From: Rhodospirillaceae bacterium
Lineage (GTDB): Bacteria; Pseudomonadota; Alphaproteobacteria; GCA-2731375
Length of the DNA: 64,000 nt
Reading direction: 5' to 3'
NCBI GenBank assembly: GCA_018660265.1
Contig: JABJKS010000045.1
Span: 62,001-126,000 of the forward strand
The notes under the pieces were generated by a model. The model had not been told where the DNA came from. It was given only the letters and a program-made list of their open reading frames with translations, and did no database searches. Positions 13,654-20,112 of the stretch are shown piece by piece; position 1 is the stretch's first letter; the number at the start of each line of letters is the position of its first letter. The position numbers and the translations under genes are program-made.

Positions 13654-15393
13654 TCAGCTTGGTGCTTTAACGCGAACCCTCTGCCGTCGTCGCTGTTTGG
13701 GGGCTGCTGCTCTGACCTCCCGGTGGGGGAGGCTTCGGGCGTCGGGAACCAGGTACACTTTCATTGTTTCTGCCCGTCCACGCACCGTAACCTCGCGGGC
13801 TTCGAATGCGCCCAAATCGGCGGCAGCGCATTCTGCCACATAATCTGAAACGATTGCCTGGACCGTGAATTCCTTGGTCATGGCTTCCAGCCGTGACGCG
13901 GTATTGACCGTATCGCCAATGGCGGTCACTGAGGTCGCGGCCCCATAGCCCATTTCACCAACGATTGTCGCACCGGCATGGACGCCAATGCCCATGCGCA
14001 GGGGTTCATCGAGGTCATGGCGTAACTGGTGGTTCAGATGCTCCAGGGCCTCTGCCATGGCCGCCGCTGCTGCCAGGGCCTGGCGGCAACCGGTTTCGAG
14101 ATCGCTTTCAACACCGAACAGGGCCATCACGCCATCGCCAATGAACTTGTCCAGATGCCCGCCTGCGCTCTCCACCGCCTGGCCCATGCCACGGAAATAC
14201 TGGTTCAGGGCAAACACCACGTCATAGGGCAGCTTGCTTTCAGAAAACTTGGTGAAGGCGCGCAAATCTGCAAACAGCACCGCGATCTCCCGTTCACTCC
14301 CTTGCAGATAATTCGGCCGGGTCTCGCCACTTTGCAGGCTGACGTTGGGTGGCAGCAAGGGCATCACAGTCACATCGGCTGTTGGACGCAGCTGGCAGGC
14401 CAGGCGGACGCTGTCCGGTGCACCGACCCGGGCCAGAACCTTCAATTCATCGCCATTCGCGGGCGGCAGGTCGGCCAGACCGGCGGCAATACGCACCCGG
14501 CAGGTGGAACAGCGTCCGTGCCCGCCGCAAACGGAAGCATGGGCAATGCCGGCCAGGCGCGAGGCATCCAGGACGCTCAATCCCGGTTCCACTGCGACCT
14601 CATGGCCATCCGGGTAGGCAATGGTAATGCGGTGGCCCCGCCGGGCCAAAAGACTCCGCAGCCAGCGGCCCAACAGCAAAAGGGCGACAATGACCAGGGT
14701 CGATAGCACTACGTAATCCGTGGTATCATAGACAAAGGCCAGCAGATCATCCATGTTGTCGCCGATTTTGAACGAGGCCATGGCTTCGTTTAGCCAGGCC
14801 TTGTCCTGGGCCCAAATGGCCACCTGCTTGCCGACGCCGGTAAAGCCGGTCAGGGCCAGGCCGGGCAAAAGCAGTGCCAGGGCCAACAGCCAGGGACGGG
14901 CGGCACCGTACCAGGGGCGTAAGCGCAGCCAGTGGTGCATGCCGATACAGCCATGCCCCCAAACCACCAGGACCGAGATGGCGAGGACCCAGCCGAACTG
15001 CGGCAGGAAAACCCAAACACTGAGAATTTCAAAGAGATAGCTGCCGTGGATGCCGAAGAATTCATGCCCGCCCCTGGTTGCCAATATATGGGCCGGCAGT
15101 AGGAAGGGGATGGCCAGGGCCAGGAAAATCTGTAAACCCTCGGCTCGTGACATGCGCAACGTACGCCGCTGCCATAGGGCGACAAGGGACATGATGATGT
15201 GTATGCCGCCCGCGCCATAAAGTAGGATGGTGGCGGGCCAATTCCGCCAGACCGCCAGGAACACCTCCGCCCCGGCCTCCATGGCGGCCAGGGAAATATT
15301 GCCCAGGGCATGGTTGATGAAATGGGTGGCGACAAATGCAAACAGCACCAGCCCGCTGCCCAGGCGAAGTTTACGTGCCCAGTCTGATCCCAT
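13654..15393 (-). CDS. class III adenylate/guanylate cyclase with membrane anchor and 2Fe-2S domain
   Basis: A 579-residue three-part signalling enzyme. Residues ~10-245 form about six membrane helices with several His (24, 28, 65, 102, 148, 153, 154) that could bind haem, like a succinate-dehydrogenase-type anchor. Residues ~255-345 are a plant-type ferredoxin domain with Cys 289, 295, 298 (C-x5-C-x2-C) and 333. Residues ~368-560 are a class III cyclase with metal Asp376 (LFADLRAF) and Asp420 (FIGDGVMALFG). This suggests cyclic nucleotide synthesis tuned by membrane redox state or quinones, as proposed for the haem-anchored CyaC of Sinorhizobium. The C-terminus is very basic (KQRRRQRVRVK). 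It starts 6 nt after the polA stop and is probably co-transcribed. ATP versus GTP specificity was not determined. Confidence 0.88.
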   Translation of the reverse strand: MGSDWARKLRLGSGLVLFAFVATHFINHALGNISLAAMEAGAEVFLAVWRNWPATILLYGAGGIHIIMSLVALWQRRTLRMSRAEGLQIFLALAIPFLLPAHILATRGGHEFFGIHGSYLFEILSVWVFLPQFGWVLAISVLVVWGHGCIGMHHWLRLRPWYGAARPWLLALALLLPGLALTGFTGVGKQVAIWAQDKAWLNEAMASFKIGDNMDDLLAFVYDTTDYVVLSTLVIVALLLLGRWLRSLLARRGHRITIAYPDGHEVAVEPGLSVLDASRLAGIAHASVCGGHGRCSTCRVRIAAGLADLPPANGDELKVLARVGAPDSVRLACQLRPTADVTVMPLLPPNVSLQSGETRPNYLQGSEREIAVLFADLRAFTKFSESKLPYDVVFALNQYFRGMGQAVESAGGHLDKFIGDGVMALFGVESDLETGCRQALAAAAAMAEALEHLNHQLRHDLDEPLRMGIGVHAGATIVGEMGYGAATSVTAIGDTVNTASRLEAMTKEFTVQAIVSDYVAECAAADLGAFEAREVTVRGRAETMKVYLVPDARSLPHREVRAAAPKQRRRQRVRVKAPS

Positions 15394-15399
15394 GATTTG

Positions 15400-18195
15400 T
15401 TAGTGCGCCTCGGCCCAGTTATCGCCAACGCCTGCATCGACAATTAGGGGCACGGACAGATGGGCCGCACCCTCCATGACACCCTTGACGACTTCGATGG
15501 TCTTGTCGATTTCGGCGTCGGGGACTTCAAAGATCAATTCATCATGGACTTGCAACAGCATGGTTGCATCTAACTGAGCCTTGTCCAGGGCACCAGGCAC
15601 GGCGACCATGGCCCGGCGGATCACATCAGCGGCTGAACCCTGGATCGGCGCGTTGATGGCGGCCCGTTCGTGGAAGCCGCGCCGGGCCTGGTTTTTGTCA
15701 TTGATGCCGGGCATATGTACCCGGCGACCATGGATCGTCTCGACATAGCCCAGTTCCCGGCAGCTTGCCTTGGTGCTTTCCATGTAATCCCGAATACCGG
15801 GGTAGCGTTCAAAATAGGCGTTGATATAGTCTTGTGCTTCGCCCCGTGCGATGCCCAGGTTATTGGCCAGGCCAAATGCGGAAATGCCATAGATGATACC
15901 AAAATTGATGGCCTTAGCCCTCCGGCGGATCATCGGGTCCATATCCTCGATAGGTAGATCAAACACTTGCGCGGCGGTCATGGCGTGAATATCCAGGCCG
16001 TCGTGAAAGGCCTGACGCAACGCCTTGATGTCCGCCACATGGGCCAGGATGCGCAGCTCTATCTGAGAATAATCCGCGCTTAACAGCTTATGTCCCGGGG
16101 CGGCGATAAAAGCCTTGCGGATGCGCCGGCCCTCTTCCGTGCGCACGGGAATATTCTGCAGGTTCGGATCGGTGGAGGCCAGTCGTCCCGTCGATGTCGC
16201 CGCCATGGCGTACGAGGTATGCACCCGCCCCGTAACATCATTGATTTGGTTTTGCAGCGAGTCTGTATAGGTGCTTTTCAATTTGGCCAATTGACGATAT
16301 TCCAGAACCCGGACCGCCAGGTCGTGTCCCTGTGCGGCCAGGCCTTCCAACACTTCTGCCCCGGTGGCATAGGCACCGGTTTTGGTTTTCTTGCCGCCGG
16401 GGATGGACATTTTCTCAAACAGGATTTCGCCCAGTTGTTTCGGTGAATTGACGTTGAATTTTTCCCCGGCCAGCTCGTGTATCTGACCTTCCAACACGAC
16501 GATTCGGGCTGCGAAGTCGGCTGATAGACGGGCCAGTTCTGCCCGGTCCAGCAAGATCCCCGCTTGTTCCATGTCGACGAGAACCGGGGCCAGGGGCCGC
16601 TCCAACGTCTCGTAAACCGTATGTTTGCGCGTCACCTGCAATTGCGGCTTCAGGTATTGATACAGGCGCAAGGTCAGGTCCGCGTCCTCTGCCGCGTATT
16701 CCGTGGCTTTGTCCAAGGGCACCTGATCAAAGGTGATCTGAGATTTGCCGCTGCCCGCCACTGCCTTGAATGGGATCGGTTCAATATCCAGGTGCAGTTT
16801 GGACAGGGCATCCATGCCATGGCCGTGCAAGCCGCCCTCGGTCGCGTAGGACAACAACATGGTGTCGTCAAAGGGGGTGATCTCGACGTCATAGCGGCGC
16901 AGGACCAACATGTCGTATTTCAGGTTTTGCCCCACCTTCAGGACCGATGGGTCCGCAAGCAGGGGGCGGAGCAGATCCAGGGCTTCCGCCAGGGGGATTT
17001 GATCCGGCGCTGTGGCGGCGTCACCACCCAGGTCCAACTCACCCGCCGGCACCGGGCCTTTATGGCCCAGGGGGATATAACAGGCCTGTCCCGGCGTGAC
17101 GGACAGGGAAACGCCCACCAAATCCGCCACCATGGCATCCAATGAAGTGGTTTCCGTATCCACCGCCACAACGCCGACTTTCCGGGCCAACGCGACCCAG
17201 GGTTCAAGTTCTGCCAGGGTTTGGATGCACTGGTATTCAAGCTCCGGTGCCGCCTCGGACGCCGCCGCTGTCTCGGGCGCAGCCGGTAGGCTGCCGCCCA
17301 GACGTTGGGCGATGCGCCCTGCCAGGCGTTCCAGTCCCATTTCCGCCATGAAGCCCAATAAAACTTCGGCTTCCGGTTCCCGCAGGCCTAGATCGTCCAG
17401 GGATGTTTCCAGAGGCACGTCGTCTTTCAGCGTGACCAGTTCCCGACTGACCCGGGCCAGGTCCGCATGATCAATCAAACTTTGCCGGCGCTTGGGCTGT
17501 TTAATTTCCTCCGCCCGCGCCAAGACGCCATCCAGATCGCCGTACTCGTTAATCAATAATGCGGCCGTCTTAATGCCGATGCCAGGTACGCCGGGCACAT
17601 TGTCCGTGGCATCACCGCACAGCGCCTGGACGTCAATAACCCGGTTGGGGCCAACGCCAAATTTCTCCTGCACCTGATCAGGACCGATCAGGCGTTGTTT
17701 CATGGGGTCATGCATGACCACGCCGTCACCAACCAGTTGCATCAGATCTTTGTCGGAACTGACGATGGTAACGGCCATGCCGGCTTCTCGTGCCAGGCGG
17801 GCATAGGTGGCGATGATGTCATCCGCTTCGAACCCCGGCATTTCGATGGTTGCAAGGTTGAAAGCTTCACTGGCCCGTTTGACCAGGGGGAATTGCGGCA
17901 CCAAATCTTCTGGTGCCGGCGGTCGATGGGCTTTGTATTCGGGATAGATATCATTGCGAAATGTTTTGCGCGCGGCGTCAAATATCACGGCGAAATAATC
18001 TACCTCGCCATCGTCACGGACATCATCCACCAGTTTCGACAGCATATTGCAAAAGCCCGATACCGCCCCGATGGGCAGACCATCGCTTTTCCGGGTCAGC
18101 GGTGGCAGGGCATGATAGGCGCGGAAGATATAGGCGGACCCATCGACCAGATACAAGTGGCCGCGGGCATTACGTTCGTTGGAAATGTCATTCAT
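15400..18195 (-). CDS. polA: DNA polymerase I
   Basis: A 931-residue repair and Okazaki-fragment polymerase with all three domains. The 5-3 exonuclease/flap domain (~1-300) opens with LYLVDGSAYIFRAYHAL and includes SSDKDLMQLV and GIGIKTA. The 3-5 exonuclease retains the DxE metal site (VAVDTETTSL, ~residue 358), so proofreading is expected. The family A polymerase domain holds SADYSQIELRILAH, RRRAKAINFGIIYG and the catalytic LLQVHDELIFEVP. I chose ATG 18195 (MNDISNERN) because the upstream extension to 18246 looks non-coding. A plus-strand sRNA candidate lies in its upstream spacer. Confidence 0.97.
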   Translation of the reverse strand: MNDISNERNARGHLYLVDGSAYIFRAYHALPPLTRKSDGLPIGAVSGFCNMLSKLVDDVRDDGEVDYFAVIFDAARKTFRNDIYPEYKAHRPPAPEDLVPQFPLVKRASEAFNLATIEMPGFEADDIIATYARLAREAGMAVTIVSSDKDLMQLVGDGVVMHDPMKQRLIGPDQVQEKFGVGPNRVIDVQALCGDATDNVPGVPGIGIKTAALLINEYGDLDGVLARAEEIKQPKRRQSLIDHADLARVSRELVTLKDDVPLETSLDDLGLREPEAEVLLGFMAEMGLERLAGRIAQRLGGSLPAAPETAAASEAAPELEYQCIQTLAELEPWVALARKVGVVAVDTETTSLDAMVADLVGVSLSVTPGQACYIPLGHKGPVPAGELDLGGDAATAPDQIPLAEALDLLRPLLADPSVLKVGQNLKYDMLVLRRYDVEITPFDDTMLLSYATEGGLHGHGMDALSKLHLDIEPIPFKAVAGSGKSQITFDQVPLDKATEYAAEDADLTLRLYQYLKPQLQVTRKHTVYETLERPLAPVLVDMEQAGILLDRAELARLSADFAARIVVLEGQIHELAGEKFNVNSPKQLGEILFEKMSIPGGKKTKTGAYATGAEVLEGLAAQGHDLAVRVLEYRQLAKLKSTYTDSLQNQINDVTGRVHTSYAMAATSTGRLASTDPNLQNIPVRTEEGRRIRKAFIAAPGHKLLSADYSQIELRILAHVADIKALRQAFHDGLDIHAMTAAQVFDLPIEDMDPMIRRRAKAINFGIIYGISAFGLANNLGIARGEAQDYINAYFERYPGIRDYMESTKASCRELGYVETIHGRRVHMPGINDKNQARRGFHERAAINAPIQGSAADVIRRAMVAVPGALDKAQLDATMLLQVHDELIFEVPDAEIDKTIEVVKGVMEGAAHLSVPLIVDAGVGDNWAEAH

Positions 18196-18284: not shown

Positions 18285-18421
18285 CAAATTGCATGGCAAA
18301 AATGTAATGATTATGCGAGTTTATGAGATCAAAAAATCATAAAAAAATTACAAAGTAACTTACTATTAATAATTACTCTTTAGTGTGGCTGTCAGTTCAA
18401 TGTGTATCACACGAACAAACA

Positions 18422-18529
18422 AGCACCGGTCACTTCCGTCCAATCCGGTGCTGCTGGGCCGGATCCCCTCCTCCTCCGGCGCAGCCTATGACGGGGCGCT
18501 GCGGCAAAAGTCGCAGCGCCCCTTTTTTT
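18422..18529 (+). ncRNA. candidate trans-acting small RNA with anti-Shine-Dalgarno loop
   Basis: In the 373 bp spacer between two minus-strand genes, the plus strand folds into three successive hairpins. SL1 is AGCACCGG/CCGGTGCT (18422-18429 with 18445-18452). SL2 is GCCGGA/TCCGGC (18458-18463 with 18475-18480), exposing the loop TCCCCTCCTCC, complementary to a Shine-Dalgarno sequence. SL3 is an 11 bp terminator with seven T. The intrinsic terminator points away from both neighbouring genes, so it must end some plus-strand transcript, and no protein frame is present. C/U-rich loops of this kind occur in alphaproteobacterial sRNAs such as the CCUCCUCCC-motif and alpha-r14 families. The 5-prime end and promoter are not located. 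Confidence 0.55.
18493..18529 (+). terminator. strong rho-independent terminator of the sRNA candidate
   Basis: GGGGCGCTGCG (18493-18503) pairs with CGCAGCGCCCC (18512-18522) over an 8 nt loop and is followed by seven T (18523-18529). On the minus strand the flank is not T-rich, so it works only for plus-strand transcription. Confidence 0.85.
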
Positions 18530-18568
18530 GGATAGGGCTGTTTTGGCCCACATGACCTGAGGCCCGTT

Positions 18569-19324
18569 TTAGGCAAACTCAAGAACCATCCCATCATAGG
18601 CCGGCACGACGCCTGCGGGCAGTTCACGACACAGAGTTTGATAATCCATGTCCCAGGTCATATGAGTTAAAACCGCCATTTTTGGCCGCAACCGTTCAAT
18701 CCATTCAAGGGTTTGGGCCAGGTGCGTATGGGTCGGGTGGGGCTTTGGGCGCAGGGCATCGACGATCCATAGATCCAGGTCCTGCAACAGCTCGAACGAT
18801 GCATCGGGCAGGCCGCTTAAGTCCGTGGAATAGGCCATGTCGCCAAAGCGAAAACCAAGGGTTTGCATGGCACCGTGCATTTGCAGGAACGGCACGATAT
18901 CAATGTCTCCCAGGGTGAACGGCCCATCAATCGTATGCGGTGTGGCGATCGCCGGGTAATTCTTGGCCTCGGCAAAAATATAACCAAATCGCTGTTGCAG
19001 GCTTTTCATTGTAAAGCTATCGCCATAAATCGGCATGCGGGCACCCTGCAACAAGGTAAAGCCCCGCAAATCATCGATACCGTTTACGTGATCCGCATGG
19101 TCGTGGGTGTAAAGGGCCGCATCCAGGTGATCCAACGCCAGGTCCAGGCATTGCTCCCGCATATCCGGGCTCGTATCCACGATCAGGGTCGTGGTATCGC
19201 TTTGCACCAGGATGGAAGAGCGACGGCGGCGGTTCTTTGGCTCCGTCGGGTCGCAAACCCCCCAGACATTACCAATGCGCGGCACCCCGCCCGACGTACC
19301 ACAGCCCAGGACAGTTGCCCGCAT
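18569..19324 (-). CDS. MBL-fold metal-dependent hydrolase (PhnP-like)
   Basis: A 251-residue metallo-beta-lactamase-fold phosphodiesterase-like enzyme. The signature THDHADHVNGID (~residues 74-85) supplies the metal ligands, with further His/Asp in FLQMHG, STDLSG and THMTWDMD. The N-terminal VLGCGTSGGVPRIG and the NRRRRSSILV strand match the PhnP/COG1235 branch, whose characterised members hydrolyse cyclic or phosphodiester substrates. ATG 19324 shares one base with the tatD stop (TGATG), so it is the coupled last gene of dacC-holB-metG-tatD-MBL. The substrate is unknown. Confidence 0.88.
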   Translation of the reverse strand: MRATVLGCGTSGGVPRIGNVWGVCDPTEPKNRRRRSSILVQSDTTTLIVDTSPDMREQCLDLALDHLDAALYTHDHADHVNGIDDLRGFTLLQGARMPIYGDSFTMKSLQQRFGYIFAEAKNYPAIATPHTIDGPFTLGDIDIVPFLQMHGAMQTLGFRFGDMAYSTDLSGLPDASFELLQDLDLWIVDALRPKPHPTHTHLAQTLEWIERLRPKMAVLTHMTWDMDYQTLCRELPAGVVPAYDGMVLEFA

Positions 19325-20112
19325 CAAGATGCCCCCTGTGCCTTGGCGAACAGGCGAAAAAAGTTAGCCGTCGTCAGGTCGGCCATCTCGTTGGCTGTCA
19401 TGCCGCGCATTTCAGCCAGCTTGGCCGCCGTATTTGCGACGAATGCGGGCTCATTGTCTTTGCCGCGATGGGGCACGGGTGCCAGATAAGGCGCGTCCGT
19501 CTCCACCAACAGACGATCCAGGGGTGTTTCAGCTGCCACCGCGCGAACCTCGTCTGCGTTCTTGAAGGTCAGAATGCCGCTGAAGGAAATATAAAAATCC
19601 AAGGCCAGGGCGGCGCGGGCCAGTTCCGGGCCGGAGGAAAAACAATGCAAGACGCCCGGGAATGCACCCTTGGCGGCTTCGTCCTGTAAAATTTCGATCA
19701 TTTCAGCATCGGCGGCACGGCTATGGACGATCAGAGGCAGGCCGGTCTGCCGGGCGGCGGCGATATGGCGGCGAAATAAAGTGGCCTGGATATCACGGGG
19801 GCTTTGGTCATAGTGGAAATCCAAGCCGGTTTCGCCAATGCCCACAACCTTGTCGTGGCCTGCCAGATCAACCAGTTGTTCTGTGCTTAGATCCGGTTCC
19901 TGCTCCGCATCATGGGGGTGCAGGCCAACTGAACAATAAACATTGTCGTAGCTTTCTGCGATGGCCAGGATTGTGGGGAAGCGTTCGACGCGCGTACAAA
20001 TCGTCACCATCGTGCCGATGCCCGCCTCTGCCGCGCGTGCCATGACGCCGTCCATGTCTTCCTGAAGCGAGGGAAAATCCAGATGGCAATGGCTATCGAC
20101 CAGTACGCTCAA
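19324..20112 (-). CDS. tatD: TatD-family metal-dependent deoxyribonuclease
   Basis: A 262-residue TIM-barrel hydrolase of the TatD/YcfH family with 3-5 DNase activity in characterised members. Metal-binding motifs: DSHCHLDF at 7-14, GETGLDFH (~92), VHSR (~128), HCFSS (~155) and ETDAPYLAP (~203). The start is TTG 20112, which overlaps the metG stop (TTGA), implying coupled translation; no better start is visible. The metG-tatD-MBL order is standard in the class. Confidence 0.93.
   Translation of the reverse strand: MSVLVDSHCHLDFPSLQEDMDGVMARAAEAGIGTMVTICTRVERFPTILAIAESYDNVYCSVGLHPHDAEQEPDLSTEQLVDLAGHDKVVGIGETGLDFHYDQSPRDIQATLFRRHIAAARQTGLPLIVHSRAADAEMIEILQDEAAKGAFPGVLHCFSSGPELARAALALDFYISFSGILTFKNADEVRAVAAETPLDRLLVETDAPYLAPVPHRGKDNEPAFVANTAAKLAEMRGMTANEMADLTTANFFRLFAKAQGAS

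What the first reader, a model, noticed from the sequence alone, without database searches (positions are those of the whole stretch)
18422..18529. Candidate trans-acting sRNA with anti-Shine-Dalgarno loop beside polA
Three hairpins, the second showing TCCCCTCCTCC in its loop, end in a strong intrinsic terminator on the strand opposite both genes. This is the layout of alphaproteobacterial sRNAs that block translation at Shine-Dalgarno sites. I do not recognise its exact family.
Basis: partly seen in the sequence, partly recalled or inferred. Interest (0 to 1): 0.7.

Follow-up and report, generated by a model that had tools for sequence, protein, structure and literature searches.

The report
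Anti-Shine-Dalgarno small RNA beside polA
A real, previously uncatalogued small regulatory RNA gene sits beside the DNA polymerase I gene in a little-known, uncultured lineage of alphaproteobacteria, and probably silences messenger RNAs by covering their ribosome-binding sites, as several known RNAs of this bacterial class do.

Summary
The hairpins, the CCCCUCCUCC loop and the plus-strand terminator fold better than all 200 shuffles (z -5.4). The same element lies beside polA in 10 of 11 genomes of the genus and in one sister genus. Its stems change in compensation (12 of 30 pairs; 0 of 500 shuffles reach this) while the loop stays fixed. It is an RNA gene, not a terminator or reading frame.

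The promoter has a conserved -10 (TANNNT) exactly 26 nt from a GTAA core in 14 of 15 copies and no TTGACA, so it is probably activator-dependent. Loop 1 carries a different conserved motif, UCCGUCC. Four genomes hold a second copy beyond the next gene.

No Rfam family is met: ar14 scores 33.7 against a cut-off of 58.8, and that model also matches cuckoo-like RNA arrays. It works like ar14/CcsR/AbcR RNAs but is not shown to be one. Most likely it is a trans-acting blocker of translation initiation; targets and expression are untested. Moderate interest: a new small RNA family of a known kind.

The parts
18348..18370 (+). Conserved promoter-upstream element gTTACaaaGTAAC..TATTAAT (consensus TTACAAAGTAAYTAnTTGTTAAT); probable activator site overlapping the -35 region
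   Evidence: alignment of 15 copies; palindrome in most polA-side copies including the sister genus G011; the GTAA core is 26 nt from the -10 in 14 copies and 27 in one; copies not beside polA keep the TTATTAAT half. Only one good match in the own genome.
18381..18386 (+). Probable -10 box TAGTGT (family consensus TANNNT)
   Evidence: Conserved position in the alignment; inferred promoter, no TSS data
18393..18529 (+). Inferred full small RNA transcript, about 137 nt (start inferred from the -10, end at the T-run)
   Evidence: start uncertain by several nt
18395..18416 (+). Conserved 5' element GTTC..GAAC (relatives GTTCGATGCGTATCAGGCGAAC), a possible weak 5' hairpin
   Evidence: 94.5% of cells paired, but only one compensatory change (37/500 shuffles); suggestive only
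18422..18452 (+). Stem-loop 1; loop motif UCCGUCC at 18435-18441
   Evidence: 6 of 9 pairs with changes on both sides; loop mostly unpaired
18453..18485 (+). Stem-loop 2 with anti-Shine-Dalgarno loop CCCCUCCUCC at 18465-18474
   Evidence: in G011 the stem is replaced with complementary changes while CCCCUCCUCC is kept
18493..18529 (+). Intrinsic terminator, 13 bp stem, AAAA loop, T7
   Evidence: covariation in 4 of 12 pairs
15403..18192 (-). polA (DNA polymerase I), divergent neighbour
   Evidence: Pfam DNA_pol_A, both exonuclease domains
18569..19327 (-). Beta-lactamase-fold hydrolase, convergent neighbour; absent beside the small RNA in sister genus G011
   Evidence: Pfam Lactamase_B_2; tblastn

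Best explanation
A stand-alone gene on the plus strand makes a small RNA of about 137 nt that acts in trans. Shown here: a conserved, covarying three-stem-loop RNA with an intrinsic terminator, a fixed exposed CCCCUCCUCC loop and a conserved promoter. Inferred: an activator bound to the TTACAAAGTAA..TTAAT element turns on transcription near 18393; the SL2 loop pairs with purine-rich Shine-Dalgarno sequences (GGAGGAGG-like) of several mRNAs, blocks 30S binding and lowers translation, perhaps with mRNA decay; the conserved SL1 loop (UCCGUCC) is a second seed that adds affinity or picks a different target set; the U-tail terminator stabilises the RNA.
For: z -5.4 and 0/200 shuffles. Covariation in 12 of 30 pairs, 30 cells, 0/500 shuffles, slid controls 0-3 pairs. 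Copies in 10 of 11 genus genomes at E 4e-13 or better and in sister genus G011 at 2e-10; G010, G011 and G004b were not in the model, so are independent. Near-invariant CCTCCTCC in SL2 although stems and linkers vary, including whole-stem replacement in G011. Promoter -10 exactly 26 nt from the GTAA core in 14 of 15 copies, 27 in the other. Tandem second copies keep promoter element and RNA. No conserved reading frame. The mechanism rests on analogy with ar14, AbcR and CcsR RNAs (PMC10746234, PMC7143759, PMC3927594).
Against: No expression data. No validated or conserved target: sites with full 10-nt complement before ATG are rare and not shared in the genus. The RNA has been lost in G007. Loop 1 is not an anti-SD sequence. 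Hfq was not looked for.
Confidence: 0.68

Rival explanations
1. It is a diverged true member of the ar14 (NfeR1) family, sharing descent with the rhizobial RNAs.
For: Best Rfam match, full length 1-123, 33.7 bits, E 1.2e-4; paralogue in G005 reaches 41.9 bits.
Against: Below the gathering score 58.8 in every copy. The model scores 36-65 bits on tandem CCUCCUCCC hairpin arrays of the cuckoo/CcsR kind, so a score of 34 does not show descent. Only one of three hairpins has the motif, and the CTTAGAC-N17-CTATAT promoter is absent. R1 finds no intermediates in 386 genomes of the class.
Confidence: 0.15
2. The RNA acts mainly in cis: antisense to the 3' end of the beta-lactamase-fold gene or by affecting divergent polA transcription.
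For: It lies 40 bp from the end of the beta-lactamase-fold gene and about 200 bp upstream of polA.
Against: In G011 the beta-lactamase-fold gene is not the neighbour but the RNA is intact; second copies lie away from polA; a cis-antisense role would not need an exposed invariant anti-SD loop; the transcript runs away from polA.
Confidence: 0.12
3. It is an RNA sponge or protein-binding decoy whose C-rich loops sequester another RNA or an RNA-binding protein rather than mRNA SD sites.
For: Anti-SD-like RNAs can be partners of G/A-rich sponge RNAs, as SisA-D with CrfA in Caulobacter (PMC12559287); two different conserved loops.
Against: No G-rich partner RNA was found or sought; mRNA regulation is the usual main role of such RNAs.
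Confidence: 0.1
4. It is only a terminator or structured spacer, or a short reading frame, with no regulatory RNA.
For: G000 has an open frame of about 52 codons from 18400; a conserved MRIRRT-like start in many copies.
Against: No start codon in G002 or G010, stop after 7 codons in G003, frames shift; terminator polarity opposite to both flanking genes; covariation in stems.
Confidence: 0.04

Closest known systems
ar14 family (RF02344; NfeR1/Smr14C2 of Sinorhizobium meliloti)
   Same: About 120-140 nt, hairpins with variable stems and CCUCCUCC-type loops, intrinsic terminator, conserved promoter-upstream element, multiple copies in some genomes
   Different: Only SL2 has the anti-SD motif, SL1 has UCCGUCC and the terminator has AAAA; below the Rfam cut-off; no CTTAGAC-N17-CTATAT promoter; beside polA; different lineage
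CcsR / cuckoo RNAs (RF02791; Rhodobacter)
   Same: CCUCCUCC in hairpin loops, several copies
   Different: 18.0 bits against 65.3; not downstream of a DUF1127 gene, not a processed tandem array
AbcR1/2 (ar15; suhB/mmgR RF00519 is partly similar)
   Same: Three stem-loops, CU-rich anti-SD motifs in unpaired regions, trans action at ribosome-binding sites
   Different: 13 bits against 41 for RF00519; anti-SD motif in a single hairpin loop
alphaR8 / SisA-D (Caulobacter)
   Same: C-rich anti-SD-like single-stranded core, terminator, several paralogues
   Different: Core UUUCCUCCCU downstream of a weak hairpin rather than in a strong stem-loop; linked to an N-formylglutamate amidohydrolase gene

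Membership tests
ar14 (RF02344) | Score at or above the Rfam gathering score 58.8 | tested here: not met
   33.7 bits; best paralogue 41.9
ar14 (RF02344) | Three hairpins each with CCUCCUCCC in the loop | tested here: not met
   Only SL2 has CCCCUCCUCC; SL1 has UCCGUCC, terminator AAAA
ar14 (RF02344) | Promoter CTTAGAC-N17-CTATAT with conserved upstream stretch | tested here: not met
   A conserved upstream element exists but is TTACAAAGTAA..TTAAT, with a TANNNT -10 and no matching -35
ar14 (RF02344) | Hfq-independent transcript, represses transporter and other mRNAs at the RBS | not testable with these tools
   Needs experiments
CcsR1 (RF02791) | Score at or above 65.3 | tested here: not met
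   18.0 bits
CcsR1 (RF02791) | Co-transcribed downstream of a DUF1127 gene, tandem array | tested here: not met
   Flanked by polA and a beta-lactamase-fold gene, both on the other strand
suhB/mmgR (RF00519), related to AbcR | Score at or above 41 | tested here: not met
   13.0 bits
Anti-SD-loop trans small RNA (functional kind) | Conserved structured RNA with own terminator and exposed conserved CCUCC loop | tested here: met
Anti-SD-loop trans small RNA (functional kind) | Pairing with SD regions represses translation | not testable with these tools
   No reporter or expression data

The most novel reading that the evidence does not exclude
A lineage-specific small RNA family, born or captured beside polA in one alphaproteobacterial family, that evolved the ar14/CcsR anti-SD-loop design independently, couples it with a second, different conserved seed (UCCGUCC) and runs under its own dedicated activator element found nowhere else in the genome.
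Probability: 0.35. Interest if true: 0.5.

Novelty: new member of a known kind. Interest (0 to 1): 0.36.

Why it matters
Anti-SD-loop small RNAs are a common post-transcriptional tool of rhizobia, Rhodobacter and Caulobacter, but families with fast-changing stems are easily missed by covariance models. This adds a family with clear covariation in an uncultured lineage, with copies whose stems have been replaced while loop and promoter stayed, which helps ask whether such RNAs share an origin or arise repeatedly. The finding itself is a solid annotation rather than a surprise.

Tried and rejected
Rfam at gathering threshold over the whole window: nothing. ar14 membership: sub-threshold, and the model is not specific. 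Reading frame: rejected. CTTTAG-N17-GTATCA as promoter: rejected because the spacing between the two elements varies by about 5 nt among copies, whereas GTAA-to-TANNNT is fixed. ChvI as activator: published motifs TTGC-N3-GCAA and GCC-N8-GCC do not match (PMC9731502). Regulon of the upstream element: 6 loose matches (one of them this site) against 3 in the reversed control, no clear enrichment. Targets: GGAGGAGGGG-N3-8-ATG gives 1 site in the own genome and none shared across the genus; GGAGGAGG-N3-9-ATG gives 24 against 5 in control, which reflects SD enrichment; only a few precede long frames (for example an Hsp20-like, a hydantoinase-like and a class III aminotransferase-like protein, guessed from the first residues alone), and simple duplex energies ignore the small RNA's own structure, so no target is claimed. 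Stem-agnostic hairpin scan upstream of polA in 75 loci of the class: only the same lineage gives a convincing hit.

Full report
OBSERVATION. The RNA fold of 18400-18540 has MFE -65.9 kcal/mol against -46.5 +/- 3.6 for dinucleotide shuffles (z -5.39, 0 of 200). Stem-loop 1 is 18422-18452, stem-loop 2 is 18453-18485 with CCCCUCCUCC at 18465-18474, and the terminator stem is 18493-18522 followed by seven T. The terminator scan finds exactly one site, on the plus strand. polA and a beta-lactamase-fold gene flank it, both on the minus strand.

CONSERVATION. A DNA search among relatives found homologues beside polA in the same genus, aligned. A covariance model of SL1-SL2-terminator (R1) finds copies in 10 of 11 genomes of the genus at E 4e-13 or better and one in sister genus G011 at 2.1e-10. 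G010, G011 and a second copy in G004 were not in the training set. G007 keeps only a remnant of the spacer with the RNA body gone, so the RNA is dispensable in nature. Three other genera of the family have no such RNA beside polA. In 386 genomes of the class (275 genera) R1 hits only this genus, and polA loci of other alphaproteobacteria give no significant hit with R1 and none convincing with a stem-agnostic scan for CCUCCUCC hairpins. The class scan used stricter filters and scored few candidates per genome, and covariance models are known to be weak on RNAs with variable stems and fixed loops (PMC3927594), so distant relatives may be missed.

STRUCTURE IS UNDER SELECTION. On 12 copies, 95.5% of cells are paired; 12 of 30 pairs and 30 cells show changes on both sides (shuffled means 6.1 and 10.5; 0 of 500 reach either), and sliding the partners drops this to 0-3 pairs. 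The loop CCTCCTCC is invariant or nearly so. In G011 the SL2 stem is wholly different (GCUAUG-A-CAGG / CCUG-A-CAUGGC) but the loop is still CCCCUCCUCC. This pattern, changing stems around a fixed loop, is that of an RNA whose loop is the active part.

ANATOMY BEYOND THE STATED COORDINATES. Aligning 15 copies shows an upstream element, TTACAAAGTAAYTAnTTGTTAAT, and a TANNNT hexamer placed exactly 26 nt after the start of GTAA in 14 copies (27 in G009a; in three second copies the hexamer begins CA). This is read as an activator site plus -10, with no TTGACA -35. It predicts a start near 18393 and an RNA of about 137 nt. A conserved 5' segment (GTTCGATGCGTATCAGGCGAAC in most) could form a weak hairpin; it is 94.5% paired but has only one compensatory change (37 of 500 shuffles), so this is suggestive. 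The element has no other good match in the own genome. Second copies of the RNA lie about 1.1 kb away, beyond the beta-lactamase-fold gene, in G004, G005, G008 and G009, and keep promoter and RNA; in G011 the beta-lactamase-fold gene is not the neighbour. So promoter and RNA travel as one unit, independent of either flanking gene.

MECHANISM. Best reading: a trans-acting RNA whose SL2 loop pairs with SD sequences and blocks initiation. Shown: RNA structure, loop conservation and exposure, promoter conservation. Inferred: transcription, activator, trans action, targets. Loop 1 has a different conserved motif, UCCGUCC, in most copies, likely a second seed. A coding function is made very unlikely by missing starts, early stops and frame shifts.

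COMPARISON. Rfam has no match over threshold. ar14 is nearest (33.7 bits against 58.8, E 1.2e-4, full length), up to 41.9 in a paralogue. But the ar14 model gives 36-65 bits on tandem CCUCCUCCC hairpin arrays that look like Rhodobacteraceae cuckoo RNAs (identification by sequence pattern, not by name), so the score measures shared design, not descent. Two defining features of ar14 from the literature, the motif in all three hairpins and the CTTAGAC-N17-CTATAT promoter (PMC10746234), are not met. CcsR1 and suhB scores are far below threshold, and CcsR RNAs are co-transcribed with a DUF1127 gene (PMC10253847), not the case here.

HOST. The window lies in a 5.5 Mb draft genome. Its nearest named record is an Alphaproteobacteria MAG, Arabian10_MAG_24 (polA 89% identical, same layout); the name suggests a marine sample. 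No closer taxonomy was established.

VERDICT. A real, conserved, uncatalogued small RNA family of a known functional kind. Interest is moderate: no surprise in mechanism, but good evidence and a possible case of repeated origin of the anti-SD-loop design.

Noticed in passing
window 13654-15393 (-): Protein with an N-terminal hydrophobic, probably multi-helix membrane part, a 2Fe-2S ferredoxin domain (Fer2) and a class III adenylate/guanylate cyclase domain (Pfam); a possible redox-sensing cyclase next to polA.
   Followed up: partly
L006 2718 (+), L008 2758 (-), L010 2705 (+), L052 1501-1610 (-): Second, more diverged copies of the small RNA beyond the beta-lactamase-fold gene in G008, G009, G005 and G004; the window's genome lacks one, its beta-lactamase-fold and TatD genes overlapping.
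   Followed up: yes
L048 / L207 (G007): The polA spacer keeps a remnant of the terminator stem and flanks but the RNA body and promoter are gone: a natural loss.
   Followed up: yes
L150, L152, L153, L157, L168-L173: Tandem arrays of CCUCCUCCC hairpins in other alphaproteobacterial genomes score 36-65 bits with the ar14 model, so RF02344 seems unspecific below its cut-off.
   Followed up: partly
L159, L160, L164: Another ar14-like RNA in one genus (g14), with CCUCCUCC in two hairpin loops and a conserved AT-rich upstream region; not studied.
   Followed up: no
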